A stretch of DNA of 64,000 bases, taken from the NCBI RefSeq assembly GCF_001610835.1, contig NZ_CP011270.1, forward strand, positions 4,916,001 through 4,980,000, written 5' to 3'. Every line of letters begins with the position of its first letter. The stretch's first letter is position 1. The notes under the pieces are model-generated. The model did no database searches. It was not told where the DNA came from and was given only the letters and a program-made list of their open reading frames with translations. This DNA is from Planctomyces sp. SH-PL14 (lineage in GTDB: Bacteria; Planctomycetota; Planctomycetia; Planctomycetales; Planctomycetaceae). The position numbers and the translations under genes were made by a program. Positions 4,573 to 50,401 of the stretch are shown here, in pieces.

Positions 4573-4916
4573 CGTCCTGGCCGGCACAGCGTTGCTCGCT
4601 CAAACCCAACGTGCCACGGCAGTCTGGGGTCAAGGGGGGCTGTGTTGTCTTCTTGGCCCCCTTGCCGCCGGAGGCACTCCTGTGAGGAACCGTGGAACAC
4701 AACGGATGACCCCTTTGTGGTACCGGCGCTGAGGACTCCACGCTCGCTCTGCAATTCCCGCGGGTTGGTGAGGGGGCATCCGGCGCCGTGTCCGCGCTTG
4801 GACACGGGCTTCTTCAGACATCTCTCGACGAGAGGGCCTCCGGCGGGCAAAGGGCCAAGAAGACAACACCGGCCCCTCTGCACTCCCCATCAGGGGTGAC
4901 CCCCTGGACCCCGGCT
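4573..4916 (+). repeat. Dispersed structured repeat, copy A (full length)
   Basis: First full copy of the roughly 335-bp family. It opens with CTGGCCGGCACAGCG and CTCAAACCCAACGTG. Next comes a left arm (GGGGTCAAGGGG, a tip cassette with GTGTTGTCTTCTTGG, then GCCGCCGGAGGC). A central part holds CCCGCGGGTTGGTGAG and a small TGTCC/GGACA hairpin. The right arm is the inverted image of the left, with GCCTCCGGCGGGC and AAGAAGACAACAC, and ends CCCCTGGACCCCGG. It lies between the divergent genes larE and kdsD, upstream of both. No target-site duplication is visible at its edges. Confidence 0.9.
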
Positions 4917-5110
4917 GTCCTTTGTAACTGATGGTCCTTCAATGCTTTGCAACTCGCGTTGACCCTCTCCGCCAACCAGCCGTACAGTTCTGGTCCCGAA
5001 TTCCGGGACGTCTCAGGGAAGAGACACGCCAGACCGGGCGCACCACCGCCCCGCACTGCCGCTTCACCCTGGGCCCTCTCCGGACACGTCATTCCGCGAG
5101 AGGTGTAGTC

Positions 5111-6127
5111 ATGTCCGCCGCCGAGAAGATCCTTTCCTTCGCGGACATCGAACCCCTCCGCCAGGCCCGCGAAATCATCCGCCTGGAAGCGGAAGCCCTC
5201 GCCGACCTCGCCCGCCGCCTCGACTCCGGCTTCTGCGACGCCGTCGACCGCCTCTCCGAATGCCGCGGCAGCGTCATCGTCTCCGGCATGGGCAAAGCCG
5301 GCCTCATCGGCCAGAAGATCACCGCCACCCTCTCCTCCACCGGCACCCGCGCCCACTTCCTCCACCCCGCCGAAGCAGTCCACGGCGACCTCGGCTGCCT
5401 CCACCCCGAAGACGTCTTCCTCGCCCTCTCCAACAGCGGCGAAACCGAAGAACTGACCGCCATCCTCCCGACCGTCCGCCGGCTGCGGATCCCCATCGTC
5501 GCCATCACCTCCTCCGAACGCAGCACCCTCGGCCGCAACGCCGACATCCGCGTCCTCCTCGGCAAGATCCCCGAGGTCGACCCCTGGGGCCTCGCCCCCA
5601 CGACCACCACCACCGCCATGCTGGCGGTCGGAGACGCCCTCGCCCTCGTCCTCAGCCGCCGCCGCGGCTTCACCCCGGAACAGTTCGCCGTCTTCCACCC
5701 CGCCGGCAGCCTCGGCCGCAAGCTCCGCGTCGTCACCGAGATGATGCGGGGCCTCGACCGGATCCGCAGTGCCCCCGAGACCGCCACGGTCCGCGAGGTC
5801 CTGACCGCCTCTTCGCAAACCGGCCGCCGGATCGGTGCCGTCGTCCTGACCGACGCCGAGGGCCGCCTCTCCGGCATCTTCACCGACAGCGACCTCGCCC
5901 GGCTCCTGGGGCGGCGACAGGACGCCTCGCTCGATCAACCGGTCTCGCAGGTCATGACCCGCAACCCGCTGAACGTCCCCACTACGGCGACCCACGGAGA
6001 CGTCGTCGCCATCCTGGCCTCCCGCAAGATCAGCGAACTCCCGGTCGTCGACGCCGACCGCCGCCCGGTCGGAATGATCGACATCACGGACGTCATCGGC
6101 TGGGAGGGGGAGGAGGGAAGGATCTAG
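5111..6127 (+). CDS. kdsD: D-arabinose 5-phosphate isomerase (SIS domain plus two CBS domains)
   Basis: Interconverts ribulose 5-phosphate and arabinose 5-phosphate, the first step of KDO synthesis for lipopolysaccharide. The N-terminal SIS domain has SGMGKAGLIGQK and HPAEAVHGDLG, followed by SNSGETEEL and the family hallmark FHPAGSLGRKL. Two CBS domains fill the C-terminal third, ending in SELPVVDADRRPVGMIDI. The predicted length of 338 residues matches KdsD/KpsF. The frame is open upstream to 4931, but ATG 5111, after GAGAGGTG, starts at the usual N-terminus. The next gene is OstA/LptC-like, which resembles the kdsD-lptC-lptA order of proteobacteria and supports a role in LPS. Confidence 0.92.
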   Translation: MSAAEKILSFADIEPLRQAREIIRLEAEALADLARRLDSGFCDAVDRLSECRGSVIVSGMGKAGLIGQKITATLSSTGTRAHFLHPAEAVHGDLGCLHPEDVFLALSNSGETEELTAILPTVRRLRIPIVAITSSERSTLGRNADIRVLLGKIPEVDPWGLAPTTTTTAMLAVGDALALVLSRRRGFTPEQFAVFHPAGSLGRKLRVVTEMMRGLDRIRSAPETATVREVLTASSQTGRRIGAVVLTDAEGRLSGIFTDSDLARLLGRRQDASLDQPVSQVMTRNPLNVPTTATHGDVVAILASRKISELPVVDADRRPVGMIDITDVIGWEGEEGRI

Positions 6128-6231
6128 GAGTCACGATTCAGGAAAGCCCATTGAAATCGGGCCCCTGAACCGACCCCTTCTCGCAGTCACAGCGTCGACT
6201 CAATCCCTGAATCCAGCTCCTCGTCTCCTCC

Positions 6232-9200
6232 ATGCCCCGCCTGCTGCTCACTGTCGCGACAGCCATCTGCCTGGTGGGGGTGTATCGGATCTACGCGCTC
6301 ATCGTGACGCCGCTGGTGACCCCGGTGGAGCAGGGGGAAGTCCGGCCGCCGGTCATGATGGCCTCCGGGGCCAAGTCGTCCGCCTCGTCCGACCTCGCCC
6401 GCGAGTTCCTGCCGAACTCCGCCTGGGCGCAGGAAGCCAAGATGTGCTGGCAGCAGTCGGAAGACGCCTGCATCTTCTTCAACGATCACCAGCGCCTGCA
6501 GGACGGCGGGAACAAGCTCCGGCTGGCTCCGTACGCCATGGTGTGGCGGGACCCGAAGCGGACCGACGGCGGCCGGTACACGATCGAAGCGGAAGGGGCG
6601 ATCGTCAGTTTCCAGAACGAGTTCTTCGACGAAGCGGTCGAATTCAGCCGCAAGCCGGGCCGGATCGTCCACCTGACTCTCGAAGGGAAAGTCCGGCTGA
6701 CGGGCCCGGACAACCTCGCGATCGAAGGGGAGAAGTTCATCTTCTCCGAGGAGTCCGCCCAGCTCTACAGCGACTGGCCCGTCACGTTCCGCTACGGCCC
6801 CGCGCCGGGTCAGTCCAACGCCGTCCGCGGACAGGCGGACCAGCTCACGGTCGAGTTCATCAAGTCGACCACGTCGGACTTCGGTCCCGATATGCCCCGC
6901 GTCGGCGGACTCTCCCGCGTCCGGCTGCGGCGGGCGGTTCAATTCGACATGACGTACGAGCTGAACGGTGCTCTCGCCCGGACCCTGGTGACCAGCGACG
7001 GCCCGTTCCTGTTCCACTATCCCGAGAAGCGGATCGAGTTCGAGGAGAACGTCAGCGTCGTCCGCCCGCAGATCATCAAGGGGGTGAAGCACATCGACTC
7101 CCTGAAAGCCCACTGGCTGGGACTCCAGTTCGTAGAAGCCGACGCACCCCCCGCCGAGGGCTCAGGCGAAACCAAGCCGGCTGTTCAGCCCGCCAGCGGA
7201 ACCAAGTTCGGCGCCGACTCCTCCATGCTGTCGAAGATCCAGTTCCGCTATCTGCGGGCGCTCGGGCGGGAGGAACCGGGGAAGCCGGTCGTCCCGCTCC
7301 ACCTCGAATCGACCTCGAACCAGTTTGCCGCCGACCTCCAGGATCTGCGGTACGACGCCCAGACGCGGGACATCGCACTGATCGATCCCGTGCAGGTCCG
7401 GATGCAGCACGGCGCGACCCGGCTCTACTCTCCTCTTGTCCGCGTCCGGCACGGCCAGCAGGGACAACCGTTCGAGGCGATCGACTGCGAAGGCGAAGGG
7501 CAGTTTGAGCAGCTGGACGAGGCGCTCGAACGGCCGATGTTCGTGGGCTCGTGGAAGGAGCGAGTCCACGTCGCCCCGGACACCCAGTCGCCGGGCAACA
7601 TTCTCACGATCCAGGGGAACGCGTCGCTGGCCCAGCCGGGGCGGTTCCAGCTGGAGAGCCAGGCGATCCAGGTGTGGCTCGAGCCGACCGCGTCCCGCGG
7701 CCAGCCTGGTGCCGCCGGCCTTGCCGGATCGGCCCTTCCGAACGCCGCCCGCAAGCTGCCGGTCCGCCGGGCGGTCGCCCAGGGGGGTGTCCGGATGGCG
7801 ACGCCGGAAGTCGTCGTCCTGACGAACCTTGCCGACGCCCGCTTCTCGGCGGGGGAGGCCGCCCCGAGGCCCGGCCGCGGGGGACCGGACCCCGCCGGCG
7901 ACGGCAATCCGCGGCAGATGCCCGGAGCCCGCGAGGAGCAGCCGCCGTTCATCGTCAACGCCGATCGGATCGAAGCCCACGTGGTCCGCGATCCGCGAAC
8001 GCAGGCGTTCGACGCTCGCGAGCTCATCGGCGAAGGGGGCATCCACATCACCCGCGAAGCGTTGGAGCGCGGCGCCGCGGCGGCGGCGGGGCCGCCGAAC
8101 CGCATCGGCGGCGATGGTCCGGTCGACATCCAGGGGCACCGCCTGCAGATGACGAACACCGGCGGCAGCCACGGTCACATCATCACCCTCGCCGGGATGC
8201 ACGATCCCCGGACGAACACGACGCGGGATGCCACGCTTCAGTTCGGCGACTACCGGGTCGAGGCCGCCGTCCTGACGTTCGACCGGTCCCGGAACGCGAT
8301 CGAAGTGCCCGGCCCCGGCCGCCTCAACATGCCCGTCTCCTCCGACCTGCGGGGGGGAAAGACCGACCGGCCGCAGATCATGAATGTTGTCTGGCTGGAG
8401 CGGATGACGTTCGACGGCCAGACCGCCAAGTTCTTCGAGCGGGTCAAGACGCAGCTGGGGCACAGCCTGCTCCTGTGCGAGGCGATGGACGTCGCCCTCA
8501 ACCGGAAGATCGACTTCACCAGCGACCACCCGGACACCAAGGGGCTTGAGCTCAAGACGGTCGACTGCCGCCACAAGGTCGTGGTCGAGACGTACGACTA
8601 CGCGGACTCGCGGCTGATCGAAGTCCTGAAGGGGAACCTCGCGGAGTTCCATGTCGATAACGCGACCGGGGAGTTCTCCGGCCTGGGGCCCGGGACCGTT
8701 CAGGACTGGCGGATCTCCAAGGGGGGCTCGTCGCGGCTGCTCTCGCTGGAGCCGACCACGACCGCCAAGGCGAATCAGCCCGTCCCGGCCCGCGAGGACA
8801 AGCGGTTCCCCTGGGAGTACGTGAAGCTCGAGTTCAAAGGGAACGTGACGGGAAACCTGAAGCGGCAGGACGCGACGTTCCGCCGGAGCGTCCAGGTCCT
8901 GTACGCCCCCGTCGCGCAGGCCCTTCAGGTGTTTCAGCGGGCAGATCTCTCGCCCGGCAGCGGGAAGGACAACGCCAACAACGCGGCGTGGCTCGGCTGC
9001 CGCGAGCTCGACATCATGATCGCCACCAAGCCCGACGGCGAGCCGAGCGCGCAGCTCCGGGCCGAAGGGGGTGATGGGGAAGACGCCTGGTTGGAAGGGC
9101 AGAAGTTTACGGCGAACGGTCACGAGGTCATCTATGACCAGGCGAAGGACCAGTTCATTCTCCGTGGCCGCGGCAAAGACAAGGCGGATATCCATTTTCA

Positions 9201-9312: not shown

Positions 9313-9460
9313 CACGTCTTGGCTGAGCCGACGCGTCGAGAGGCGAGATCCCGGTCTTTGTGGGCTCTCTCCCGTCACCCTGGTCGCGCAGGGTCCAATC
9401 GGACGGCATTCACCGCGTGGTGCCTCGTCTTGTTCGCTGCATGGAGCCGGCAGAGCGGCA

Positions 9461-9476
9461 CGGCATAGGGATTGCC
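9461..9476 (+). promoter_or_regulatory. Possible sigma54 (-24/-12) promoter
   Basis: CGGCATAGGGATTGCC has GGCA at the -24 position (GG at 9462-9463), exactly 10 nt between GG and the GC at 9474-9475, and TTGC at -12. That matches the key bases of the sigma54 consensus. Transcription would start near 9487, about 30 nt before the ATG at 9518. This is a pattern match only, and no activator gene is next to it. Confidence 0.35.
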
Positions 9477-9517
9477 TTCTTGGTGCAAGCCATGTTCCCC
9501 TTGCAGGAGAGACGATC

Positions 9518-9901
9518 ATGTCCATCAGGCCAGAAGTCGATCGCGGACAGGATGCGAAGTTGTATGCCGGGCGGGTTCTGGGTTTTGCCGACACCCGCGA
9601 GCAGGTCGATCGCATTGCATCGGAGTTGAACGACGCAGGAATCGGCGACGAGCGGATTCTGATCCTGGCCGGAGACGACGGGATTGAGATTCTGAACCGG
9701 ACGCTGAAGGAGTTCTTTTTCAGTGACGGCGAAGACCAGACGGTTATTAACGGCCTCCGGGAGCTCCGGGATGGCCATCTGGTGATTGAGGTCGAGGTGG
9801 CTGACCGGGACGAGGCGGTGAAGGTGGTGAATCTCTCGGCCCCGCACGGCGGCCGGACGTTCACTTACTTCGGCACGCTCATGAATGAACAGATGAGCTG
9901 A
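9518..9901 (+). CDS. Small soluble protein of unknown function, resembling stress-protein (YflT-type) folds
   Basis: A 127-residue soluble protein, preceded by AGGAGAG at a good distance from the ATG. The pattern GRVLGFADTREQVDRIASEL, a helix, then DERILILAGDDG and later GHLVIEVEVADRDEAVKVV suggests two alternating beta-alpha-beta halves. That is reminiscent of the small general-stress protein domain of the YflT/17M type, which starts with a similar strand and EQ-rich helix. The resemblance is weak and no catalytic motif is visible. It stands alone, with a possible sigma54 promoter in front and repeat copy B beginning 7 bp after its stop. Confidence 0.7.
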   Translation: MSIRPEVDRGQDAKLYAGRVLGFADTREQVDRIASELNDAGIGDERILILAGDDGIEILNRTLKEFFFSDGEDQTVINGLRELRDGHLVIEVEVADRDEAVKVVNLSAPHGGRTFTYFGTLMNEQMS

Positions 9902-9907
9902 TCCACC

Positions 9908-10243
9908 TGGGTCCAGGGGTACCCTGGTGGGGAGTGCAGAGGGGCCTGTGTTGTCTTCTTGGCCCTTTGCCCGCCGGAGGCCCCCTCGTCGAGAGATGTC
10001 TGAAGAAGCCCGTGTCCAAGCGCGGACACGGCGCCGGATGCCCCCTCACCAACCCGCGGGAATTGCAGAGTGAGCGCGGAGTCCTCAGTGCCGGTACCAC
10101 AATGGGGACATCTGTTGTGTCCCACGGTTCCTCACAGGAGTGCCTCCGGCGGCAAGGGGGCCAAGAAGACAACACAGCCCCCTTGACCCCAGACTGCCGT
10201 CGCACGTTGGGTTTGAGCCAGCAAGGTCGCGCCGGCAATGACG
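9908..10243 (-). repeat. Dispersed structured repeat, copy B (full length)
   Basis: Same element as copy A but in the opposite orientation, lying between two convergent genes (stops at 9901 and 10254) and nearly filling the gap. Read on the + strand it starts GGGTCCAGGGGTACCCTGG and ends GGGTTTGAGCCAGC. Both arms carry the GTGTTGTCTTCTTGG cassette in the same relation as in copy A, which makes A and B the closest pair in the window. Confidence 0.9.
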
Positions 10244-10253
10244 GTGTCTAACC

Positions 10254-12416
10254 CTACTGCTGCTCTTCCAGGTCCACAAACCGCGATTCCGTGTGCGTCA
10301 CGATCGCATCCTTCTCCGCGTACCGGATCGCCGTCGTCCCCCGGTAACACCGCAGCACGGACAGCACACTCTCCACCTGCCCGTGAATCGCGTTCACCCC
10401 AAAGCCCGAGGCCGCTCCCTCTTCCTGCGGGATCTGGGCAAACCCATAGTTGATCCACGGGACAAGGGCGTCGATGAACCCCGCAAAGTTCACATGCTGG
10501 ACCGACAGCAGATTCGTCTTCCCGGCCAGCGGCCCCTCGAACTGGAACGGCTTCTCCAGGATCACTCGTTCCGCCTGCGGAATCGACGTCGTGAAGATCG
10601 CGTAGCTGGACCCCACACCCAAAGTGCCGGCCAACTGGTCATCCACACCCGCCGCTTTCGGAATCTCGATCAGATACACATTGCCGCCCGCCACGCCCCG
10701 CTCCGACCACGCCGGCAGATCGATTTCCGGCAGGTCGTCCGGACTCTCGGCCTGGATCGTCTTCATCAGGTCGCCGACAAACGTGTAAAGCTGGTCCATC
10801 CCGGACAGGAACTTGTCCTGATCGCTCAGTCCCAGAACGATCCCCAGCTCCAGCATCGGCAGCGGCTCCGAAGCCTCCGGCATGTCGCGGAACCACTGGG
10901 TTGACGTCGCCTTGGCGTCGATGACCAGCCCGATCTGCCCGTCCTGCAGGGCCGGAACAAAGTAATCTCCGAGCAGCACGTCGAACCGCTTGAGATACGG
11001 AACGGCCAGCTGCCGGAAGTGCTCATACTCCCCCTTGTCATCCTCATCGATGTTGCTGAGGACCGTGGTGTCGACATAGCCGAGGATCCGCTGCAGCGTC
11101 GGCCGCATCTCCTTGTACTCGTCGGGCGAAGCCTGGCTGCGGGTCACCGCGAAGAGCAGCGGCGAGCCCCCGACGTGCGAGAGGATCGGCAGCGGCGTTC
11201 CCGTCTGCTTGCCCACCCCGCCCACCTCGTACTGGAACGACTCCGTTCCGCGGTCGGTGAGGAAGGAGCAGCCGACGGTCGCGTGCGGCGTTCCGGTCGT
11301 CTCCTGCTTCACCCGCTCTTCGAGGGACTTGAGATCCTTCTCGAAGGCCTCCTTGGTGGCGTCCGGCGTGTTCGAGGCGTCCATCGCCTGCCGGACCACT
11401 CCCGAAAGGGCCATGATCTGGCCCGCGGCCGCCTGCTGCTGGATCTCGATCAGCCGCCGGCTGGAGTACCAGATGTTCGTGATCTTCTGGTCCTGGTGCG
11501 GGAAGATCTTCTGGAAGTCCGGAACGTCGGCGAGGGTCTTCCCCTGGCCGAGCAGCTTGAGGTGATCGTTGGACTCTCCGGCGGTGAAGAAGAAGTAGCC
11601 GTCGCGGACACCGAGCGAGACGAGCAGGGTCTTGCTCTTGAGGTGGTCGAGGAGCGGCTTGACCTCCTCGGCGACATCTTCGTCGATCTCGGATTCCAGG
11701 TCCGTCCAGTCGATCGATTTGAGGGCGAGGGAGATCGTCAGGAAATCGCCGCCGGCGATCTGCTGTCGGCTGACTTCGAACTTGGCCTGCTCGATCGACG
11801 GGAGGTTCTCGTCCGCCATCTTTTCCAGCCGGTCGAGTTGGGCGCGGGCGACCTCGGGCTTGGTGATTTTGGCACCGAAGACAATGGGGGAGAACCGGAG
11901 CTTGTCCTTGCTCTTGAGAAGCCGGGCCACGATTTCGCGAATGACCTTCTTCTGGGCTTCCTCGTCCTCTTCGCCAGCGATTCCCGCCTGCATCTGGGCG
12001 AACCGGACGTCGTTGCTGATCTCCTGGATGAGGGCGAACGACTCGATCAGTGCCGGATCGCTGTAGGCGAAGATCTCCTGCGTTCCGGCGTCCTGGAGGA
12101 GGTCGACGAGGTCCTTGTTGGCCTTCTTCTTGAGGAAGTCGCGGAGGGGGGCGAAGGTTTTGGAGCGGTACTGGGCCTGGAGGAGGTTGAGGCCGAGCTG
12201 GACGCTCGGCATGTTGTAGAGGCGGTCGTAGGCGCGGCTCTTGATGAACTTGTTGTACTGTTCTTCGAGCCGCATCGACGACATGTAGAAGCCGGCGTCG
12301 GCGGGGACGAAGCGGAGTGAGGTCGTCGTCTTGAGGTCTTCGCCGCGGCAGACCGCGATGAGGGTGGTGAGCAGGAGGGTGGCCGTTGCGAATCCTCTGG
12401 CCAGAACGACGCGCAT
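10254..12416 (-). CDS. Large secreted protein of unknown function
   Basis: A 720-residue product starting MRVVLARGFATATLL, a clear signal peptide of about 25 residues with a cleavage region near VCRGED, so the mature protein is exported. AAGGA lies 7 nt before the ATG at 12416. The frame is open further upstream but there it runs through repeat copy C and is not credible. The mature part is soluble with charged helical stretches and no motif I recognise. Segments on an FVPADAGFYMSSM theme resemble no enzyme family known to me. Repeat copies B and C bracket the gene on both sides. Confidence 0.8.
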   Translation of the reverse strand: MRVVLARGFATATLLLTTLIAVCRGEDLKTTTSLRFVPADAGFYMSSMRLEEQYNKFIKSRAYDRLYNMPSVQLGLNLLQAQYRSKTFAPLRDFLKKKANKDLVDLLQDAGTQEIFAYSDPALIESFALIQEISNDVRFAQMQAGIAGEEDEEAQKKVIREIVARLLKSKDKLRFSPIVFGAKITKPEVARAQLDRLEKMADENLPSIEQAKFEVSRQQIAGGDFLTISLALKSIDWTDLESEIDEDVAEEVKPLLDHLKSKTLLVSLGVRDGYFFFTAGESNDHLKLLGQGKTLADVPDFQKIFPHQDQKITNIWYSSRRLIEIQQQAAAGQIMALSGVVRQAMDASNTPDATKEAFEKDLKSLEERVKQETTGTPHATVGCSFLTDRGTESFQYEVGGVGKQTGTPLPILSHVGGSPLLFAVTRSQASPDEYKEMRPTLQRILGYVDTTVLSNIDEDDKGEYEHFRQLAVPYLKRFDVLLGDYFVPALQDGQIGLVIDAKATSTQWFRDMPEASEPLPMLELGIVLGLSDQDKFLSGMDQLYTFVGDLMKTIQAESPDDLPEIDLPAWSERGVAGGNVYLIEIPKAAGVDDQLAGTLGVGSSYAIFTTSIPQAERVILEKPFQFEGPLAGKTNLLSVQHVNFAGFIDALVPWINYGFAQIPQEEGAASGFGVNAIHGQVESVLSVLRCYRGTTAIRYAEKDAIVTHTESRFVDLEEQQ

Positions 12417-12506: not shown

Positions 12507-12842
12507 CCGGGGTCCAGGGGCTCGCCCTTGGTGGGGGATGCAAGGGGGCCTGTGTTGTTTTTTGGCCCCCTTTGCCCGCCGGAGGCCCGTCTCGTCTCGA
12601 TCTCTCTGAAGGAGCGAGTGTCCAAGCGCGGACGACGTGGCGGATGCCCCCCTCACCAACCCGCGGGGATTGCAAAGCCAGCGGTGTGGCGGGAGGGAGT
12701 CCTCAAAGCTGGTACCACAAAGGGGACGCCCGTTGCTTACCACGGTTCCTCATGGAAGCGCCTCCGGCGGCAAGGGGTGACCCCCTTGACCCCGGCTGCC
12801 GTCACAAGTTGGGTTTGAGCCAGCAGAACCGTGCCGGCGAGA
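12507..12842 (-). repeat. Dispersed structured repeat, copy C (full length)
   Basis: Full copy in minus orientation, between the start of the secreted-protein gene and the stop codon of carA. It reaches to within one or two bases of the carA stop at 12844. The right arm carries the TGTTGTTTTTTGG cassette; the left arm has only a short TGA tip. The arms of one copy can therefore differ in tip content. Confidence 0.9.
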
Positions 12843-12843
12843 A

Positions 12844-13983
12844 CTACTTCGCCCCGACCATCATCTTCCGGAACTCGCCGAACAGGTAATGGCTGTCGTG
12901 CGGACCCGCGGACGCTTCCGGATGGTACTGCACGCTGAACGCCCCCTTGGACTTCGAGCGGATCCCCTCGACGGTGTCGTCGTTGAGGTTGATGTGGGTC
13001 ACTTCCACGTCGGACGGCAGCTTGTCCGGCGCGAGAGCAAAACCGTGGTTCTGCGAGGTGATCTCCACACGGCCCGTGTCCTTGTTGAGGACTGGCTGGT
13101 TCCCGCCGCGGTGGCCGAACTTGAGCTTGTAGATCTCGCCGCCGAGAGCCAGCCCAAGGAGCTGGTGTCCCAGGCAGATCCCGAAAACCGGCTTCTTCCC
13201 GAGCAGTCCCTGGATCGTCTCGACCGCGTAGTCGAGGGGCCGCGGGTCGCCGGGGCCGTTCGAGAGGAACACGCCATCCGGGTTCTGAGCCAGGACTTCA
13301 TCGGCCGAGGAGGTCCCCGGCATGACGGTGACACGGCAGCCCATCTCGGCGAGGTGCCGGGGGATGTTCCACTTCATGCCGTAGTCGAGAGCCACCACGT
13401 GCGGCAGCGTTCCGGACTTGTCACCGCTGAAGGTCTTGGGCGTCGTCGGATCGCGTTCGAGATCGTGAACCCCGTCCTTCCACTCGGACGCCTGCTTCGG
13501 AGAGACCTCCCGAACGAGGTCGTGTCCGACGATGTTCCAGCTCCGGGCCTTTTGAACGAGCGAAGCGTCGTCCAGATCGACCGAAGAGAGGACTCCGGTC
13601 ATGGCGCCGTTCACCCGCAGCCGCCGCACGAGAGCCCGTGTGTCGATCCCTTCGATGCCGGGGATGCCGTTCCGCTTGAGGTAGTCGGAGAGCGATTCCT
13701 GCGAGCGGTAGTTGCTCGGCTCCTTGCAGACTTCCTTGGCAATGAAGCCGCGGATCGCCAGCCGTCCGCTCTCGACGTCTTCGGAATTGATGCCGTAGTT
13801 CCCGATGAGCGGATACGTCATGCAGACGATCTGCCCATTGTAGGAGGGGTCGGTCAGGATCTCCTGATACCCCGTCATGCTCGTGTTGAAGCAGACTTCC
13901 CCGCAGACTTCGGCATCCGCTCCGAAGGACTGCCCCGTAAAGACTGTCCCATCCGCCAGGGCCAGCTTCGCAGGTTTCGACAT
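12844..13983 (-). CDS. carA: Carbamoyl-phosphate synthase small chain (glutamine amidotransferase)
   Basis: Supplies ammonia from glutamine to the large subunit CarB for carbamoyl phosphate, feeding pyrimidine and arginine synthesis. The N-terminal CPSase domain has the typical FNTSMTGYQEILTDPSY block. The C-terminal class I amidotransferase domain has LSNGPGDP, the nucleophile Cys270 in VFGICLGHQLLG, and the His/Glu pair in VQYHPEASAGPHD. Predicted length is 379 residues. ATG 13983 follows GGGAG by 8 nt; a TTG one codon upstream is also in frame. No carB or pyr gene is adjacent. Confidence 0.97.
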   Translation of the reverse strand: MSKPAKLALADGTVFTGQSFGADAEVCGEVCFNTSMTGYQEILTDPSYNGQIVCMTYPLIGNYGINSEDVESGRLAIRGFIAKEVCKEPSNYRSQESLSDYLKRNGIPGIEGIDTRALVRRLRVNGAMTGVLSSVDLDDASLVQKARSWNIVGHDLVREVSPKQASEWKDGVHDLERDPTTPKTFSGDKSGTLPHVVALDYGMKWNIPRHLAEMGCRVTVMPGTSSADEVLAQNPDGVFLSNGPGDPRPLDYAVETIQGLLGKKPVFGICLGHQLLGLALGGEIYKLKFGHRGGNQPVLNKDTGRVEITSQNHGFALAPDKLPSDVEVTHINLNDDTVEGIRSKSKGAFSVQYHPEASAGPHDSHYLFGEFRKMMVGAK

Positions 13984-16179: not shown

Positions 16180-16495
16180 CGTCCTTGCCAGCACAGCGAT
16201 GCTCGCTCAAATCCAACGTGCCACGGCAGCCGGGGTCAAGGGGGTCTCACCCCCTTGCCGCCGGAGGCGCTTTCACGAGGAACCGTGGTAAGCAACGGAC
16301 GTGCCCTTTGTGGTACCGGCGTTGAGGACTCACCACGCGCTTTGCAATCCCCGCCGGTTGGTGAGGGGGCATACGGCACGTTGTCCGCGTTTGGACACAA
16401 ACTCCTTCAGGCATCTCTCGACGGCCAGGCCTCCGGCGGGCAAGAGGGCGTTGCCCCCTTGCATCCCCCACCAGGGGTGCCCCTGGACCCGGTTC
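16180..16495 (+). repeat. Dispersed structured repeat, copy D (full length, short tips)
   Basis: Plus-orientation copy starting 18 bp after the cyclase stop. Both arms have short tips instead of the long cassette (TCTCA on the left, CGTT on the right), while the stems CAAGGGGG/CCCCCTTG and GAGGG/CCCCCTTGC are intact. That makes it about 30 bp shorter than copy A. Confidence 0.9.
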
Positions 16496-19180: not shown

Positions 19181-19242
19181 CAGCGACCCGCTGGACCGGG
19201 CGGCCGTGGAGTAGTGGGATTGAGCTATGGTTACCGTGCCGG
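19181..19242 (-). repeat. Dispersed repeat fragment J (terminal piece only)
   Basis: About 60 bp related to the outer end of the repeat family: CCCGCTGGACCGGG, then GGCCGTGG, then GATTGAGCTATGG and GTGCCGGC. It matches the piece at 53116-53165 (CCCGCTGGACCGGG, GGGTTTGAGCTATGG) more closely than the full copies, so the two belong to one sub-family. No arm hairpin or central part is present. Confidence 0.6.
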
Positions 19243-19562
19243 CGGGCGCGGTGTTCGAGCGGGTGTCACTGCTGCCAGCTTTGGGCCAGCAGTGATTGGG
19301 CATCCAACTCGAACTCGGCACTGCGGGTCAAAGCACCCGCAGTGGCATCCGGCGAGCATTTCGGCCAGGACCTCGCATCGAGGTGGTCGAACTTCCGGGT
19401 AAGCAGAGCGATGATCCGGAGCTCGCCGGGATGGGCCAGGATGATTCGTGTGGCGCGCGGCTCGACAAGCATGCCCATCAAGCCGAGGTTGGAATGCACG
19501 CCTGGGCAGCACTGCCGGCGGATGAACTGATTCATGACGCCGTGTCACTGCGGCCGGCGAAG
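19243..19562. repeat. Gene-poor stretch with two adjacent hairpins of a CACTGC...GCAGTG type
   Basis: Between citrate synthase and the patatin gene no convincing gene is seen. Two hairpins stand 24 bp apart: cactgctg (19267-19274) with cagcagtg (19287-19294), and the perfect 10-bp stem cactgcgggt (19319-19328) with acccgcagtg (19335-19344). Both end in GCAGTG followed by a CATCC word, so they look like two members of one short palindromic repeat. A minus-strand frame at 19266-19535 (89 codons) crosses them and has no supporting feature. Confidence 0.5.
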
Positions 19563-28896: not shown

Positions 28897-29226
28897 CGTC
28901 CTTGCCGGCACGACGCTGTTTGCTCAAACCCAACGTGCGACGGCAGCCGGGGGGCAAGGGGCCAAAGAAACAACACAGGCCCCTTGCCGCCGGAGGCGCT
29001 TCCATGAGGAACCGTGGTACGCCACGGGTGTCCGCTTTGTGATACCAGCGTTGAGAACTCAACGCTCGCCTTGGGAGCCCCGCGGGTTGGTGGGGGGGCA
29101 TACGACACGGTGTCCGCGTCTGGACACGGCGCGCTTCAGACAGTTCTCGACGGCCAGGCCTCCGGCGGGCAAAGGGGCGTTGCCCCTCTGCACTCCCCAC
29201 CAGGGGTGCCCCCTGGACCCCGGTCT
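28897..29226 (+). repeat. Dispersed structured repeat, copy E (full length, inverted tip cassette)
   Basis: Plus-orientation copy between convergent genes. Its left arm carries the long cassette in the opposite orientation to copy A (GGCCAAAGAAACAACACAGG instead of its complement), while the right arm has a short CGTT tip. The central part holds a perfect small hairpin, AGCGTTGA with TCAACGCT, and the TGTCC/GGACA hairpin. Confidence 0.9.
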
Positions 29227-38380: not shown

Positions 38381-38454
<74 letters not shown>

Positions 38455-38546: not shown

Positions 38547-38619
38547 GGGGACGTAGCTCAATTGGGAGAGCACCGGCTTTGCAAGCCGGGGGTTGAGGGT
38601 TCGATCCCCTTCGTCTCCA
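38547..38619 (+). tRNA. tRNA-Ala (TGC)
   Basis: 73 nt with acceptor stem GGGGACG/CGTCTCC (one G-U pair), the D-loop GCTCAATTGGGAGAGC, anticodon TGC in CTTTGCAAG, and T-arm GAGGGTTCGATCCCC. It follows tRNA-Ile by 92 bp, the classic Ile-Ala spacer pair. Confidence 0.97.
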
Positions 38620-42521: not shown

Positions 42522-42588
42522 GTGCGCGCTGAGCTGACCTCCAGATCCGATTCCCGTCGGAACGTTGGATTATAGAGGGACGGGGCGC

Positions 42589-45944: not shown

Positions 45945-45982
45945 TTCCGACTGGGATCGGACCTCGATAGTCTCTCCTCGAA

Positions 45983-46018
45983 GCGCATCGTCCTCACTGT
46001 GGGGGCGATGCGTTTTTC
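45983..46018 (+). terminator. Terminator after glutamine synthetase
   Basis: GCGCATCG and CGATGCGT bracket an inner CCTCAC/GTGGGG pair, followed by TTTTTCTTTT. It starts 39 bp after the glnII stop. Confidence 0.9.
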
Positions 46019-46072
46019 TTTTGGGCCGCTGAGTCTTCTCCGGACGAGTGTTTCTGGAATCGTGGTGGCTGC

Positions 46073-46609
46073 TCATTCGGAAGCAGGAGGGGCACTGGCG
46101 AGGGGAAAATGGTCGAGGCCGCGGTGGGCGAGTTCCCAGCTGAGGGCATCTCCTTCCGGTAAATCGGCCGCGCCGAGCCGGCGGAGGAAGTAGAGGCACT
46201 GGGCCCGGTGGTGCATTCCGTGCGTCGCGATGTGGACGAGGCCCGCTCCGAGCGGCTTTCTCCGGGGAGGATTGTCGAGAGCGTCGACGAACTCGTCGTC
46301 CGCCCGGTCCTCGCGCTCGACCGATTCGCCCAGGGCCAGCAGCTCCGCCGCCACGCGATCGAGTCGCTCGATCAGTCCGGCGATCGAATTCGCGGCTTCT
46401 CCGGGAACGTTTTCCCGTTGAGGAGATCCGGTCATCAGATCGCACCAGCATTCCATGTTGCTGATCATGTGGACGAAGGTGCGACGGAGTGTCCGGTAGC
46501 CGAGGTCGAACTCCTGGTCCAGCGCGGCGTCCGGCAGCTTTGCCGCTCGCAGCAGCAGCTCCCGGGTTGTCCAAGCGTCGTGCCGCAGCAGGCGTTCGAG
46601 AATCGTCAT
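46073..46609 (-). CDS. DinB-family four-helix metalloprotein
   Basis: A 178-residue helical protein with the three metal-binding histidines of the DinB/YfiT fold: His47 in TFVHMISN, and His130 and His134 in IATHGMHHRAQ. Helix pattern and length fit the family, whose members include thiol transferases and proteins of unknown role. The N-terminus MTILERLLRHDAWTTREL is typical. The next gene on this strand, the M19-like protein, ends about 57 bp upstream of it, so the two may be transcribed together. A specific substrate is not predictable. Confidence 0.85.
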   Translation of the reverse strand: MTILERLLRHDAWTTRELLLRAAKLPDAALDQEFDLGYRTLRRTFVHMISNMECWCDLMTGSPQRENVPGEAANSIAGLIERLDRVAAELLALGESVEREDRADDEFVDALDNPPRRKPLGAGLVHIATHGMHHRAQCLYFLRRLGAADLPEGDALSWELAHRGLDHFPLASAPPASE

Positions 46610-46666
46610 GGCTCTATCGGTACAGACATTCGATGGGCTGGTCGCCTACTGTGGCAACAGGTTCGG

Positions 46667-48061
46667 TCAGGCCGACGGTGTGCTGTCGACGAGGACATCG
46701 CGGCAGACGCGGAGCACGTTCTCTCCAAGGATCTTTCGGATGTCGTCGTCCTTGTAGCCCCGCTGGACGAGGCCGACAGTGAAGAGGGGCCAGTTGGTCC
46801 AGGCGAGGCTGTCCTGCCGGGGCCAGTTTCCGCCGAGGGCGCCGTCGGGCCAGAGGGCGGCGAAGCGGGTGCGGCGGGCCGCGCGGCGGGGGACTTTGGC
46901 GTTTTCGGCGGCGCTGTGCTGGGAGGTGTGGGAGACGTCCGTCCCGATCGCGACGTGTTCGACACCGAAGGTTTTCGCGGCGTAGTCGATGTGGTCGAGG
47001 AGGGCGGCAATGTCGCCGGTCCGGGCCAGGAACGGGGCGATGCAGCAGATCCCGATGAGGCCGCCGGTGTCGCAGATGGCGCGGATCACCTCGTCCGGCT
47101 TGGAGCGGATGTGGCTGTTGAGGGCGCCGCAGACCGTGTGGCTCGCGACCATCGGCTTTTTCGAGGCTTTGGCGGCTTCGAGACTGGTCTTCCAGCCGGA
47201 ATGCGCGACGTCGACGATCACACCGACGCGGTTCATCTCTTCGATGGCCAGTCGCCCGAGGTCGCTGAGGCCGCCGTTGGCCGGCTCCGCGCAGCCGTCG
47301 CCGAGCATGTTGCGGCGGTTGTAGGTGAGGTGCATCATCCGGATGCCGAGTTGGTAGAAGACCCGGATGTAGCCGAGCTCCTCTTCCGCCGTGACCCAGG
47401 CCTGCGGGAGTGGAACGCCGTTGCCCGTGAGATAGAGGCAGTGCCGGTCGGCCTTCTTGGCGGCGAGGATGTCGTCGGGCTGGGTGGCGCGGACGAGCGT
47501 GCCGCGGAGTTTGTCCCCCAGGTAGGTGAAACGGGCCAGCCGCTTGAGGAGCATCAGCGGGTCCTGCCCCTCCTCGCCGGCGTTCTGGAAGATGGCGGTG
47601 ACGCCGCTGCAGGTCAGCGCCTCGCGGAACTCTTCGCTCTCGAGCGTGCTGAGCGCCGGCCGGATCATCCCCATCTCTTCGCGGGCGTCCTGCATCTCGG
47701 CGTCGGAGGCCTTCGCCTCGTCGAGGGCCTTGAGGGCGGCGCCGTCGACCGCGGCGCGGGGGGCGAAACCGTAGGAATCGAAGACGAGGCTCTCCCGATG
47801 CAGCGCCAGTCCCCGTTCCAGCTCGGCCGGCGTGGGCCGGAGGATGGCGAGAGCGGCGTCGCGGACGCGGGCGATTCCGGCGTGAGCCGTGGCCATCAGG
47901 GGATGCGGCCGCAGAGTGGCGGAGGGGGAGGGTGAGGGGGACGGGGCGGGTGTCGAATCCTTTTCCTGGGCCGAGGCGGTCAGGGCCAGGCTGGCGGCGG
48001 AGAGTCCGGCTGCGGTTCCGAGAAACTGACGGCGGGGAAGCGGAGTGTCGAAGGGGGGCAT
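46667..48061 (-). CDS. Tat-exported M19 (membrane dipeptidase) family protein with altered metal site
   Basis: A 464-residue protein with an N-terminal twin-arginine signal (RRQFLGTAAGLSAASLALTASA). The M19 barrel is recognisable from DVAHSGWKTSLEA (His287) and IGTDVSH (Asp375) and by overall layout. Two usual zinc ligands are not where they should be: the N-terminal HXD motif reads FDSYGF (94-99), and the LTHN motif reads LTYN (245-248). So one or both metals may be lost or rebuilt from other residues. M19 enzymes cleave dipeptides, but catalysis here is uncertain. An exported role is clear. Confidence 0.85.
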   Translation of the reverse strand: MPPFDTPLPRRQFLGTAAGLSAASLALTASAQEKDSTPAPSPSPSPSATLRPHPLMATAHAGIARVRDAALAILRPTPAELERGLALHRESLVFDSYGFAPRAAVDGAALKALDEAKASDAEMQDAREEMGMIRPALSTLESEEFREALTCSGVTAIFQNAGEEGQDPLMLLKRLARFTYLGDKLRGTLVRATQPDDILAAKKADRHCLYLTGNGVPLPQAWVTAEEELGYIRVFYQLGIRMMHLTYNRRNMLGDGCAEPANGGLSDLGRLAIEEMNRVGVIVDVAHSGWKTSLEAAKASKKPMVASHTVCGALNSHIRSKPDEVIRAICDTGGLIGICCIAPFLARTGDIAALLDHIDYAAKTFGVEHVAIGTDVSHTSQHSAAENAKVPRRAARRTRFAALWPDGALGGNWPRQDSLAWTNWPLFTVGLVQRGYKDDDIRKILGENVLRVCRDVLVDSTPSA

Positions 48062-48163
48062 CGGCAGGTTGGGGAAGGAGGATCGTGGGGCGGGCAGTCT
48101 TCTCTTGCTGAGGCGTTTGGCGATTGAGGGAGGCGTGTTCGATCTCTCGGGGACCTTCGCGCC

Positions 48164-48481
48164 GCGTTCTCGCCGGCACGACGATGCTCCCTCAGGCCCA
48201 ACGTGCGACGGCAGCCGGGGTCAAGGGGGCCTCGCCCCTTTGCCGCCGGAGGCGCTTCCATGAGGCCCCGTGGGATACAACGGACGTCCGTTTTGTGGAG
48301 CCGGCGTTGAAGACTCAACGCTTGTTCTGCAATCCCCGCGGGTTGGTGAGCGAGCATCCGACACGGTGGCCGCGTTTGGACACGCGCTCCTTCAGTGAGA
48401 TCGAGACAGGCCAGGCCTCCGGCGGGCAAAGGGGCGTTGCCCCCTTGCATCCCCCACCAGGGTAGCCCCTGGACCCGGTTC
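48164..48481 (+). repeat. Dispersed structured repeat, copy F (full length, short tips)
   Basis: Plus-orientation copy between two minus-strand genes (M19 start and DUF1501 stop). Tips are CCTC and CGTT. The central hairpin GCGTTGA/TCAACGC is perfect. Outer end CGCCGGCACGACG resembles copy E. About 100 bp on the M19 side and 70 bp on the DUF1501 side hold nothing recognisable. Confidence 0.9.
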
Positions 48482-48548
48482 TTAGGCCTTCTTGTCTTTG
48501 AGTCTTTGTGTTGAACCACGGACCGGTCGATCCGCAGAGCGCTGGCCG

Positions 48549-50021
48549 TCACGCCAAAATTCCCTCCACCACCTCACCATGAACATCCGTCAGACGATAC
48601 TGCCGTCCCTGATAACGGAACGTCAGCCGCGTATGATCAATTCCACAACAATGCAGCATCGTCGCCTGCATGTCATGAACGTGGACCGGGTTCTCCACGA
48701 TGTTCCAAGCGAAGTCATCCGTCGCACCATAAACCGTCCCCGGCTTGATCCCACCACCCGCCAGCCACCAGCTGTAAGCCTTGCCAAAGTGGTCCCGCCC
48801 CTTGGGACTCGCCGGGTCCCCCTGACCAAACGGCGTGCGGCCGAACTCGCCCCCCCAGACGACCAGCGTGTCGTCGAGGAGCCCCCGGTCCTTGAGGTCC
48901 TGGACGAGAGCGGCCGACGGAGCGTCGGTGTCCTTGCAGTTCTCTTCGAGCTGCGTGAACAGGTTGCCGTGCTGGTCCCAGCCGGCGTGCATGAGCTGGA
49001 CGAACCGGACCCCGCGCTCGAGCAGCCGCCGGGCGATGAGGCAGTTGTTCGCGTAGGAACCCTTCACGAGAGCGTCCGGTCCGTAGCGCTCGATGGTCGA
49101 CTTCGTCTCGCCTGAGAAGTCGACAAGGTCCGGGACGCTCGACTGCATCCGGAACGCCATCTCGTACTGGGCGATGCGGGTGTCGATCTCGGGGTCGCCA
49201 TAGTCCGCCAGGTGCTGGGCGTTCATCGACGCGATGTCGTCAAGGAGCGCCCGCCGGGCCTCACCCGTCACGCCGGGCGGGTTCGCGAGATACGGGACGA
49301 GGTCACCCGAGTTGCGGAACTTGACCCCCTGGAACCGGCTCGGGAGGAAGCCGCTTCCCCAGTAGTAGTCGAAGAAGAGCTGCCCGCAGGTCTTCCCTTT
49401 GTCGCTCGACGTCATGACGACGAACGTCGGCAGGTTGTCGGTCTCGCTCCCGAGGCCGTAGGAGAGCCAGGCTCCCATGCTGGGGCGGCCGGGGACCTGG
49501 GCTCCGGTCATGAAGAACGTGACGCCGGGGGCGTGGTTGACCGCCTCGGTGTGCATGGAGCGGACGAGGCACAGGTCGTCGGCGAGGGCCCCGATGTTGG
49601 GCAGCATCTCGCTCATCCGGGTGCCGGCTTTGCCGTAGTTCTTGTGGGGCTTGATCGCGGGGACGCAGGGCCATTTGCCGTAGCCGCTCGACATCGTCGA
49701 GAGCCGGGTCGAGCCGCGGACGGTGTCGGGGATGTCTTTGCCGGCCATCTCGCGGATGACCGGTTTGTCGTCGAAGAGGTCGAGGTGCGAGGGGCCGCCT
49801 CCCTGCCAGAAGACGACGACGCGTTTGGCCTTGGGGGCGTGGTGCGGCAGGCCCGGGAGGCCGCGCGGGGTCTTGTCTCCTTCGGTGGCGGCGGAGGCGC
49901 CGGACTGCTGCATCAGGCTGGCGAGGGCGGCGACGCCGATCCCGCCGGCGGTTTGGCCGAACATCTGCCGCCGCGTGACGCGGTGGATGTTCTCGCGGAA
50001 GAGGTCGTGGGAGAAGTTCAT
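48549..50021 (-). CDS. DUF1501 Tat-exported sulfatase-fold protein
   Basis: A 490-residue member of DUF1501, a planctomycete-rich family with an alkaline-phosphatase/sulfatase-like fold. The N-terminus has TRRQMFGQTAGGIGVAALA, a Tat signal. KRVVVFWQGGGPSHLDLFD (about residues 66-84) is the family start, and VVWGGEFGRTPFGQ with KGRDHFGKAYSWWLAGGG is the hallmark of the C-terminal half. Nearly always it follows a DUF1549/DUF1553 gene and is co-transcribed with it; that gene is at 50477-53062 here, on the same strand, but repeat copy G lies between them. The substrate of the pair is unknown. Confidence 0.93.
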   Translation of the reverse strand: MNFSHDLFRENIHRVTRRQMFGQTAGGIGVAALASLMQQSGASAATEGDKTPRGLPGLPHHAPKAKRVVVFWQGGGPSHLDLFDDKPVIREMAGKDIPDTVRGSTRLSTMSSGYGKWPCVPAIKPHKNYGKAGTRMSEMLPNIGALADDLCLVRSMHTEAVNHAPGVTFFMTGAQVPGRPSMGAWLSYGLGSETDNLPTFVVMTSSDKGKTCGQLFFDYYWGSGFLPSRFQGVKFRNSGDLVPYLANPPGVTGEARRALLDDIASMNAQHLADYGDPEIDTRIAQYEMAFRMQSSVPDLVDFSGETKSTIERYGPDALVKGSYANNCLIARRLLERGVRFVQLMHAGWDQHGNLFTQLEENCKDTDAPSAALVQDLKDRGLLDDTLVVWGGEFGRTPFGQGDPASPKGRDHFGKAYSWWLAGGGIKPGTVYGATDDFAWNIVENPVHVHDMQATMLHCCGIDHTRLTFRYQGRQYRLTDVHGEVVEGILA

Positions 50022-50070
50022 AATGTCGAAGTTAAGTGAACTGGTGGTCGGTCTCTATCGGTTCGAGCCA

Positions 50071-50401
50071 TGTCCTTGCCGGCACAGCGTTGTTAGCTCA
50101 AACCCAACGTGCCACGGCCACCTGGGGTCAAGGGGGCCACGCCCCCTTGCCGCCGGAGGCATTCCTGTGAGGAACCGTGGTACACAACGGACGTCCCCTT
50201 TGTGGCACCAGCTATGAGGACTCCCTCAATCCACACAGCTTGCTTTGCAATCCCCGCGGGTTGATGAGGGGGGCATACGACACGGCGTCCGCGCTTGGAC
50301 ACCCTCTCCTTCAGACATCTCTCGACGGTCAGCCTCCGGCGGGCAAGAGGGCGTTGCCCCCTTGCATCCCCCACCAGGGGTGACCCCCTGGACCCCGGTT
50401 C
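50071..50401 (+). repeat. Dispersed structured repeat, copy G (full length) inside a conserved gene pair
   Basis: Plus-orientation copy lying in the 455-bp gap between DUF1549 (upstream) and DUF1501 (downstream), both on the minus strand. Tips are CCA (left) and CGTT (right). The central part has an extra short insertion near ACTCCCTCAATCC, relative to the other copies. The flanks have no gene. Confidence 0.9.

What the first reader, a model, noticed from the sequence alone, without database searches (positions are those of the whole stretch)
4573..50401. A dispersed, structured intergenic repeat family (7 full copies, 4 pieces) that I do not recognise
Seven copies of 315-345 bp (4573-4916 +, 9908-10243 -, 12507-12842 -, 16180-16495 +, 28897-29226 +, 48164-48481 +, 50071-50401 +) share an ordered set of words: CTCAAACCCAACGTG, GGGGTCAAGGGG, GCCGCCGGAGGC, CGCGGGTTGGTGAG, a TGTCC/GGACA hairpin, GCCTCCGGCGGGC and CCCCTGGACCCCGG. 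The two ends are inverted repeats of each other (CCGGGGTC with GACCCCGG, GCCGCCGGAGGC with GCCTCCGGCGGGC), and each arm is itself a GC-rich hairpin. Stems stay paired while tips change. Copies lie only between genes, in either orientation, and make up about 4% of the window. It carries no transposase and I see no target duplication. The design suggests selection on a fold, so a mobile non-autonomous element or a structured RNA/DNA element.
Basis: seen in the sequence. Interest (0 to 1): 0.88.

Follow-up and report, generated by a model that had tools for sequence, protein, structure and literature searches.

The report
Shuffled intergenic repeat, about 900 copies
About nine hundred versions of one roughly 316-letter hairpin-armed DNA repeat sit between the genes of a single planctomycete bacterium, and the versions look as if they have swapped short pieces with each other freely, which is unusual for repeats in a bacterial chromosome.

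Summary
In detail: seven full copies and four pieces lie in the window. A profile finds 204 near-full copies in 2.0 Mb sampled evenly from the 8.44-Mb genome, so about 860 genome-wide (3.2%). None of 230 copies overlaps a called gene; no Rfam match. The exact arm pattern is absent from 247 other genomes of the class, but a solo hairpin plus GCCGCCGGAGGC recurs in Desulfoluna, Oscillibacter, Aminicenantes, Myxococcota and others. There the word side lies within 30 bp of a stop codon in 36 of 77 modules, the hairpin side in 1 of 77.

The 212 aligned copies show no average linkage beyond about 50 nt, although they share complex local alleles; no pair exceeds 93% identity. So short segments seem exchanged between copies, unlike a recent or clonal transposon burst. 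Constraint is very uneven and weaker in truncated copies. Compensatory changes stand out only in the arm hairpins.

I read it as an old, non-autonomous REPIN/MITE-like repeat evolving by gene conversion, tolerated and perhaps used just behind stop codons. Its mobiliser was not found: a RAYT and an IS200-type transposase exist, neither bracketed by the element. No target duplication was found.

The parts
4573..4916 (+). full copy; long hairpin tip of the CTGTGTTGT/ACAACACMG type in both arms
   Evidence: nhmmer 3.7e-104; alignment
9908..10243 (-). full copy; nearest relative of 4573 (93%), sharing an 86-column identical stretch (columns 163-248) between divergent flanks; lies 6 and 10 bp from two convergent stop codons (called genes end at 9901 and 10254)
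12507..12842 (-). full copy; one base from the end of a carA-like gene (12844-13983 -)
16180..16495 (+). full copy
   Evidence: nhmmer 1.1e-108; arm 1 at 16232-16268
28897..29226 (+). full copy; long tip in arm 1 only
48164..48481 (+). full copy
50071..50401 (+). full copy
   Evidence: RNA fold z -5.3
50124..50160 (+). arm 1 of the 50071 copy, the hairpin-plus-GCCGCCGGAGGC module whose pattern recurs in other phyla
53242..53377 (-). piece: 3' part (model 209-350)
53113..53190 (-). piece: 5' part (model 18-95), lying after the 3' part on the minus strand (permuted order, as in L125)
60266..60457 (-). piece: 3' half (model 161-346), left arm lost
19185..19260 (-). weak piece: 5' part (model 20-96, E 3e-4)

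Best explanation
It is an old, non-autonomous interspersed repeat of about 316 bp, built as a 5' hairpin plus two inverted, outward-facing GC-rich hairpin arms around a ~160-bp core. It probably spread through one planctomycete lineage by an enzyme acting on the arms in trans; the lack of target duplication and the REPIN-like architecture fit a single-strand (HUH/IS200-like) route better than a DDE route. Since then the ~860 full copies have exchanged short stretches (tens of bp) with each other by gene conversion or template switching, so variants at distant positions are independent. Insertions survive only in gene-free gaps outside tight operons, mostly just behind stop codons. Shown: copy number, architecture, absence from sampled relatives, placement, uneven constraint, linkage equilibrium, no detectable target duplication. 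Inferred: past mobility, the type of enzyme, gene conversion as the exchange route.
For: Dispersed in both orientations: 442 forward and 423 reverse arm words genome-wide; the four gene-orientation contexts are evenly filled, 59/58/51/50 of 218. Chance-like spacing: 2.18 per 20 kb, variance 2.41, 19 of 100 stretches empty. Exact arm pattern in 0 of 247 other genomes of the class; BLAST hit in 1 of 39 relatives, a 37-bp match inside a stretch conserved at 77-78% over 301 bases in two congeners, probably coding and not the element. Two relatives sampled at 200 kb each have 0 and 20 bases with 5 or more repeat partners, against 6403 here. Exchange: mean G between variable columns is 6.92 at 51-100 nt and 6.99 beyond 100 nt (permuted 6.98, 6.94), against 61.7 at 1-3 nt. 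Binary statistic 1.06, permuted 1.07, simulated clonal family 142. For ten multi-base local alleles, carriers are not clearly more alike more than 40 nt away than random sets (closest: 5 of 60 sets as high), while 8 of 10 are more alike within 15 nt. The closest pair shares an 86-column identical tract between divergent flanks; longest identical runs reach 110 columns, 69 when columns are shuffled. Not recent: best pair 93%, median 82%. Target-duplication scan: best excess 7 seen against 1.3 expected among 7200 combinations, away from the ends.
Against: No mobilising enzyme found. The genome has one clear RAYT (L133, NF047646, 182 bits) and one IS200-type transposase (L132), but the 3.4-kb RAYT locus holds no element and no 14-mer with 12 or more copies in the sample, and L132 is bracketed by a different palindromic family. 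Only 7 of 14 module-bearing genomes of other phyla have a Y1_Tnp match. No clean empty site was recovered. Low divergence at 103 of 316 columns (<2%) without recent copying is not what an inactive parasite should show. Some distant associations remain (arm-1 tip with arm 2, 10 of 400 permutations as high; largest G beyond 100 nt 29.5 against 24.4 permuted). A star phylogeny with saturated, constrained sites could mimic part of the pattern.
Confidence: 0.5

Rival explanations
1. A host-maintained gene-boundary element: the outward-facing hairpin arms cap or terminate transcripts arriving from either side, and each copy is under purifying selection. The GCCTCCGGCGGC-hairpin module would be a general bacterial 3'-end device, doubled here into a bidirectional one.
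For: In tandem gaps median distance to the stop codon 20 bp, relative position 0.13 from stop (0) to start (1); 1 of 148 tandem gaps under 60 bp occupied, against 16-19% of longer ones; in 18 of 52 occupied convergent gaps 20 bp or less is left beside the element. In other phyla the word side of the module is within 30 bp of a stop in 36 of 77, the hairpin side in 1 of 77; outside Desulfoluna 13 and 1 of 41. Truncated copies (63) diverge 3.7% at columns that diverge 0.8% in full copies (1.2% held out), but only 1.1 to 1.6-fold more elsewhere. In the 11 closest pairs 11 of 285 differences fall in the conserved third of columns.
Against: Avoidance of promoters and operons also follows from selection against harmful insertions. 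The arms face the other way from the solo modules (hairpin side outward). Outside Desulfoluna the word side faces a stop no more often than the hairpin side (25 and 24 of 41); only the closeness differs. No T-run follows the hairpins in the consensus, so they do not look like intrinsic terminators. Not found in the sampled relatives.
Confidence: 0.27
2. Copies arose by reverse transcription of element RNA with template switching, which would create mosaics as they were made.
For: Linkage equilibrium and mosaic alleles; five reverse-transcriptase genes in the genome. Of three tested, two score best with retron models and one with the group II intron model, all below the curated cut-offs.
Against: No group II intron RNA at the five RT loci. 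One element 0.3 kb from one RT is no more than the element's density predicts. Truncations are seen at either end. No evidence of transcription.
Confidence: 0.08
3. A structured non-coding RNA gene family expressed from hundreds of loci.
For: Strong predicted fold and compensatory changes in the arm hairpins.
Against: No compensatory support for the core, the closing helices or, above slid controls, the 5' hairpin; no Rfam relative; both strands fold about equally well (-205 and -201 kcal/mol consensus energy on 100 of 176 copies); orientation indifferent to genes.
Confidence: 0.05
4. An ordinary MITE or IS remnant decaying neutrally after one burst.
For: Interspersed, non-coding, short terminal inverted repeat, roughly equal distance of all copies to the consensus.
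Against: Per-column divergence ranges from <1% (73 columns) to >30% (48 columns) where neutral decay predicts about 12% everywhere. Shared multi-base alleles do not come from independent decay. No target duplication. No parent with an internal transposase was seen among adjacent partial hits; one copy (L063) holds a 395-bp insertion with a 96-aa ORF of no Pfam family, and two (L058, L095) hold other insertions.
Confidence: 0.1

Closest known systems
REPINs / REP doublets with RAYT transposases (PMC3116915, PMC3733652; passages read)
   Same: High copy, extragenic, either orientation, two inverted palindromic ends more conserved than the spacer, predicted hairpins, no transposase inside, an intragenomic sequence population.
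   Different: About 316 bp with a long partly conserved core and a 5' extension. The genome's RAYT is not flanked by the element, whereas the REPIN paper reports a REP beside each RAYT it examined. Linkage equilibrium among copies does not appear in the passages I read.
CGTC-tagged REPs (PMC3733652; passages read)
   Same: Palindromic repeats without a known dedicated transposase; the element's left end reads CGCGTCC, so a CGTC tetranucleotide lies beside its 5' hairpin.
   Different: REPs are 20-40 bp; one tetranucleotide near an end is weak evidence and I did not compare with their families.
TIRYT / IS200-type elements with repeated terminal inverted repeats (PMC3733652; passages read)
   Same: In this very genome an IS200-type transposase (L132) is bracketed by inverted, hairpin-bearing repeats (CCTGGGGCAACGCCCCAGG type) that also occur as stand-alone palindromic repeats: a similar design with its enzyme still present.
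   Different: Sequence unrelated to the element; matches in only 3 stretches of the 2.06-Mb sample.
Bacterial MITEs (e.g. MITEAba12, PMC6382973; search listing and start of abstract only)
   Same: Non-coding, dispersed, short inverted ends.
   Different: No target duplication or parental insertion sequence found, very high copy number, mosaic rather than clonal variation.
Other intergenic palindromes of this genome (CCACAGATAAACACAGAT, TTAAACACCAAGACACC, GGAGGCGGAAGG families)
   Same: Intergenic, imperfect palindromes.
   Different: Shorter (median 47-115 bp), 25-40 segments each in the sample, no sequence shared with the element that I saw.

Membership tests
REPIN / REP (RAYT-associated) | two inverted, highly conserved ends with a less conserved spacer | tested here: met
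   columns under 2% divergence: 26 of 39 in arm 1, 43 of 64 in arm 2, 34 of 213 elsewhere
REPIN / REP (RAYT-associated) | cognate copy beside the RAYT gene | tested here: not met
   RAYT locus L133 (3.4 kb) has no element hit and no 14-mer with 12 or more copies in 2.06 Mb
REPIN / REP | GTAG or CGTC tag next to the palindrome | tested here: inconclusive
   by eye on the consensus: no GTAG; CGTC is part of the left end CGCGTCC beside the 5' hairpin, none at the right end
MITE | terminal inverted repeats | tested here: met
   short imperfect AACCGSGTCC ends; left end poorly conserved
MITE | target-site duplication | tested here: not met
   no convincing flanking direct repeat of 2-10 bp over 800 offset pairs, 194 anchored of 212 copies
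MITE | autonomous parent with the same ends | tested here: inconclusive
   none seen among adjacent partial hits in 2.06 Mb, 24% of the genome
Rfam RNA families | score above the gathering threshold | tested here: not met
   only rRNA and tRNA in the window; three sub-threshold hits in eight element loci, none on the element; 16 module stretches of other phyla: only tRNA and glycine riboswitch
Structured RNA with a conserved fold | compensatory changes across helices | tested here: inconclusive
   arm-2 hairpin and arm-1 tip yes; closing helices, core and 5' hairpin not above controls
tRNA-derived repeat | tRNA match in the copies | tested here: not met
   the only window tRNAs are at 38381-38454 and 38547-38619
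IS200/IS605-derived non-autonomous element | ends shared with a Y1 transposase gene of the genome | tested here: not met
   two Y1_Tnp matches; one bracketed by another repeat family, one without the element in its locus

The most novel reading that the evidence does not exclude
The ~900 copies behave as one freely recombining population inside a single chromosome, held together by copy-level selection as gene-end boundary elements, and their arms are an undescribed module (stop codon - GCCTCCGGCGGC - hairpin) that several phyla carry singly at gene 3' ends and this lineage has doubled into a bidirectional form.
Probability: 0.18. Interest if true: 0.82.

Novelty: new variant of a known kind. 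Interest (0 to 1): 0.58.

Why it matters
Bacterial repeat families are usually read as bursts of a mobile element. Here about 860 copies of a 316-bp element, 3.2% of the genome, are close to linkage equilibrium, which makes segment exchange between dispersed repeats measurable from one genome sequence. The arm resembles a hairpin-plus-word module often found just behind stop codons in other phyla, with no Rfam match in the 16 stretches tested and no description found by searching its letters in the held papers, so it is a concrete, testable candidate for a 3'-end element. The same genome also holds the parallel case of a palindromic repeat with its IS200-type enzyme attached.

Tried and rejected
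RAYT or IS200 as the mobiliser: not supported for the two Y1 genes of this genome; in other phyla 7 of 14 module-bearing genomes have no Y1_Tnp match. The RAYT here scores only 24 bits with Y1_Tnp, so such searches can miss RAYTs.

A relative in the same family (G023 hit): probably a coding gene, not the element.

Plasmid, phage or virus origin: no match in plasmids or phages; viral contigs 0 for an exact arm-plus-core pattern and 1 for the arm alone.

Target duplication and empty sites: none convincing. One copy (L095:15210) lies between two oppositely oriented units of another palindromic family, but these also occur singly, so it shows no insertion site. Flanks of 210 copies are inverted repeats of each other in 2 cases, against 1 of 1043 mispaired flanks at score 28; at 24 it is 2 of 210 against 5 of 1043.

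Distance effect: pairs under 10 kb are slightly more alike (0.828 against 0.823, 9 of 500 permutations as high).

Tree-aware covariation null: its maxima were very high (74 to 221), so it is conservative; I rely on helix counts with slid controls.

Reverse transcriptases: five, none tied to the element.

Corrections made on re-checking: the weak fourth piece and the truncated-copy counts without overlapping or cut-off hits (an earlier count of 69 included such hits); the orientation bias of solo modules split by genus, which showed that facing a stop is a Desulfoluna result while closeness to a stop is wider. For that reason I lowered the boundary-element rival from 0.30 to 0.27 and the novel reading from 0.22 to 0.18.

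Papers: the sequence search returned 18 papers, unrelated by their listing; other searches listed no description of this repeat or of the module, judged from titles and abstract starts. PMC4666352 (passages read) describes an E. coli triplex motif of different sequence.
Full report
WHAT IS THERE. The window lies at C1:4916001-4980000 of a single-contig 8,442,773-base genome. Some of its genes are of planctomycete type (PSCyt1/PSCyt2/PSD1 and DUF1501 proteins) beside ordinary ones such as a carA-like gene and a SIS/CBS protein (9 proteins scanned). I took 100 evenly spaced 20-kb stretches, which with the window make 2.06 Mb, 24% of the genome. A profile from the seven copies gave 325 matches at E <= 1e-3, 211 of them over 85% of the model: 7 in the window and 204 in the 2.0 Mb of stretches, hence about 860 near-full copies in the genome, 3.2% of it. 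Exact word counts over the whole genome agree: CCCCTNGCCGCCGGAGGC 442+423, reversed control 0. Of the 400 most frequent 16-mers of the sample, all but a run of N (masked sequence) occur in the 212 extracted copies.

ANATOMY. The consensus is about 316 bp: (1) a short imperfect terminal repeat AACCGCGTCC, poorly conserved on the left; (2) a 5' hairpin TGCCGGCACG/CGTGCCACGGCA; (3) arm 1, GGGGTCAAGGGGG-tip-CCCCCTTG followed by GCCGCCGGAGGC; (4) a core of about 160 bp with a TGTCC/GGACA hairpin and a variable insertion; (5) arm 2, GCCTCCGGCGGGC followed by two hairpins and ending in GGACCCGGTT. The arms are inverted and face outward. Over 212 copies the seven helices are 88-99% paired, against 2-73% when slid by 1-3 columns (the structure was drawn from the consensus, which favours it; the two-pair arm-1 tip is 47% paired). 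Changes on both sides of a pair stand out in the arm-2 hairpin (130 cells, 4 of 10 pairs, slid at most 47) and the arm-1 tip (54 cells, slid at most 6). The 5' hairpin has 21 such cells, but slid versions reach 44; P1, P2 and H3 have none, arm-1 stem and core hairpin 2 each. Against a tree-aware null only two pairs stood out, both non-complementary alternatives. A single copy folds well below shuffles (z -5.3 as RNA, another -3.05 as DNA).

A CROSS-PHYLUM ARM. One exact arm-plus-core pattern had no match in a collection of 84,980 species, from which the own genome may be left out. The arm pattern did: the scan stopped at 120 stretches, of which the 80 listed come from Desulfoluna, Desulfovibrio and relatives, Oscillibacter and other Clostridia, Aminicenantes, Myxococcota, Acetobacteraceae and others. 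In 18 such genomes the shorter word occurs 1 to 186 times, reversed control 0. In the window's own class only this genome has the arm pattern (1 of 248). Elsewhere the module is mostly solo: 154 modules in 120 stretches, 11 neighbour pairs closer than 700 bp, 2 of them in the orientation seen here. With codon-trained gene calls on the 80 titled stretches (105 modules: 77 used, 14 near an end, 11 inside a called gene, 3 without neighbour), the GCCGCCGGAGGC side faces a stop codon in 53 of 77 (median 18 bp) and the hairpin side in 36 of 77 (median 209.5 bp). Split by genus, facing a stop is a Desulfoluna result (28 against 12 of 36); in the other 41 modules it is 25 against 24. Closeness is wider: within 30 bp of a stop the word side has 36 of 77 and the hairpin side 1 of 77 (13 and 1 of 41 outside Desulfoluna, from Oscillibacter, Aminicenantes, Desulfovibrio, Acutalibacter and one other). 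A second hairpin often precedes the module, which lengthens the hairpin-side distance. A naive first version gave 56 of 73.

PLACEMENT HERE. None of 230 copies overlaps a called gene by more than 60 bp; orientation relative to the neighbours is even. In tandem gaps with one full copy (99) it sits near the upstream stop (median 20 bp) and away from the downstream start (137 bp). Tandem gaps under 60 bp, presumably inside operons, hold 1 copy in 148, longer ones 16-19%. In 18 of 52 occupied convergent gaps the element leaves 20 bp or less; the copy at 9908-10243 lies 6 and 10 bp from two convergent gene ends.

THE COPIES ARE CLOSE TO LINKAGE EQUILIBRIUM. 212 copies have a median pairwise identity of 82% and no pair above 93%. 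With 85 columns varying in more than 15% of copies, association falls from a mean G of 61.7 (1-3 nt) through 21.5, 13.5 and 7.9 to 6.92 at 51-100 nt and 6.99 beyond 100 nt, with permuted means of 6.98 and 6.94. A simulated clonal family gives 142 on a binary version of the statistic, the real data 1.06, permutation 1.07. The variants are not simply independent point mutations: blocks have a few complex alleles at high frequency, including a 17-base AACAACACAG-type tip that occurs in arm 1 of 28 copies (four of them reversed) and in arm 2 of 24, both arms in 5 (3.2 expected). For ten such alleles, carriers are not clearly more alike beyond 40 nt than random sets (closest 5 of 60 as high), while 8 of 10 are more alike within 15 nt. 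Exceptions: neighbouring blocks in and beside arm 1 are associated, and the arm-1 tip is weakly associated with arm 2 (10 of 400 permutations as high). The closest pair, 4573 and 9908, shares an 86-column identical tract between divergent flanks, and the longest identical runs reach 110 columns, against 69 after shuffling columns. I infer exchange of short segments among copies; gene conversion is the simplest route.

CONSTRAINT. 103 of 316 columns diverge by less than 2%, 48 by more than 30%, unlike uniform decay. In 63 truncated copies (1 overlapping and 5 cut-off hits dropped) the conserved columns diverge 3.7%, against 0.8% in full copies (1.2% when the columns are chosen on half of the copies and measured on the other half), while mid and variable columns rise only from 6.8 to 10.8% and from 32 to 37%. 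In the 11 closest pairs 11 of 285 differences fall in conserved columns, where a third would be expected. Either intact copies are selected, or only intact copies take part in copying and conversion; the data do not decide.

MECHANISM. No target duplication, no usable empty site. The genome encodes a RAYT (L133; NF047646, 182 bits) whose 3.4-kb locus has neither the element nor any 14-mer with 12 or more copies in the sample; its flanks hold a few short palindromes of the type GTGGTGCGTTGNCACGC. It also encodes an IS200-type transposase (L132) bracketed by inverted hairpin-bearing repeats that match stand-alone repeats elsewhere in the genome (L105, L075, L059). So an HUH enzyme beside an arm-hairpin-arm repeat exists here for another family, which makes a similar route plausible for the element, but its own enzyme is unknown.

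VERDICT. Real, so far seen in one lineage only, unmatched in the libraries searched, and built like REPINs and MITEs while failing a defining test of each (cognate RAYT; target duplication). The unusual facts are the linkage equilibrium and the arm module shared across phyla near gene 3' ends. Interest 0.58.

Noticed in passing
L132 (G000:C1:6246572-6246910): IS200-type transposase gene bracketed by inverted hairpin repeats (ACGCTGAAGGCGT...CCTGGGGCAACGCCCCAGG...CCCTGAAGGGGCG) that also form stand-alone palindromic repeats (e.g. L105:14554-14744): a REPIN-like family with its enzyme.
   Followed up: partly
L133 (G000:C1:2097753-2098121): Clear RAYT gene (NF047646, 182 bits) that Pfam Y1_Tnp scores at only 24 bits; flanks hold short palindromes of the type GTGGTGCGTTGNCACGC.
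   Followed up: partly
e.g. L072:13284-13458, L121:6267-6434, L091:7464-8147: Other intergenic palindromic families: CCACAGATAAACACAGAT (40 segments), CGGGAGGGCGAGGCTCC (30), TTAAACACCAAGACACC (29), GGAGGCGGAAGG (25). From recall, the first and third types are widespread in other bacteria; not tested.
   Followed up: no
window:53113-53377 and L125:13226-13515: Pieces of the element in permuted order (3' part, about 50 bp, 5' part) at two loci, suggesting a second arrangement of the same modules.
   Followed up: partly
L063:9940-10679: A copy with a 395-bp insertion in arm 1 that holds a 96-aa ORF (10109-10399 +) with no Pfam match at E 1.
   Followed up: partly
L105:1892, L126:3014, L098:1380, L124:9483: Solo arm-like modules outside element hits, joined to a diverged sequence (GGACCGTT beside the GCCTCCGGCGGC word): possibly a second, rarer related family.
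   Followed up: no
window:38381-42479: Two tRNAs, 23S and 5S rRNA genes with no 16S match in the window: an rRNA operon without its small-subunit gene.
   Followed up: no
L293-L297: Five reverse-transcriptase genes in the genome; of three tested, two score best with retron models and one with the group II intron model, all below the curated cut-offs; no group II intron RNA at the five loci.
   Followed up: partly
window:53532-54053: Two direct repeats about 330 bp apart (120 nt at 88%, 65 nt at 77%) in a stretch without a called gene; similar sequence recurs in L053:9335-12817.
   Followed up: no
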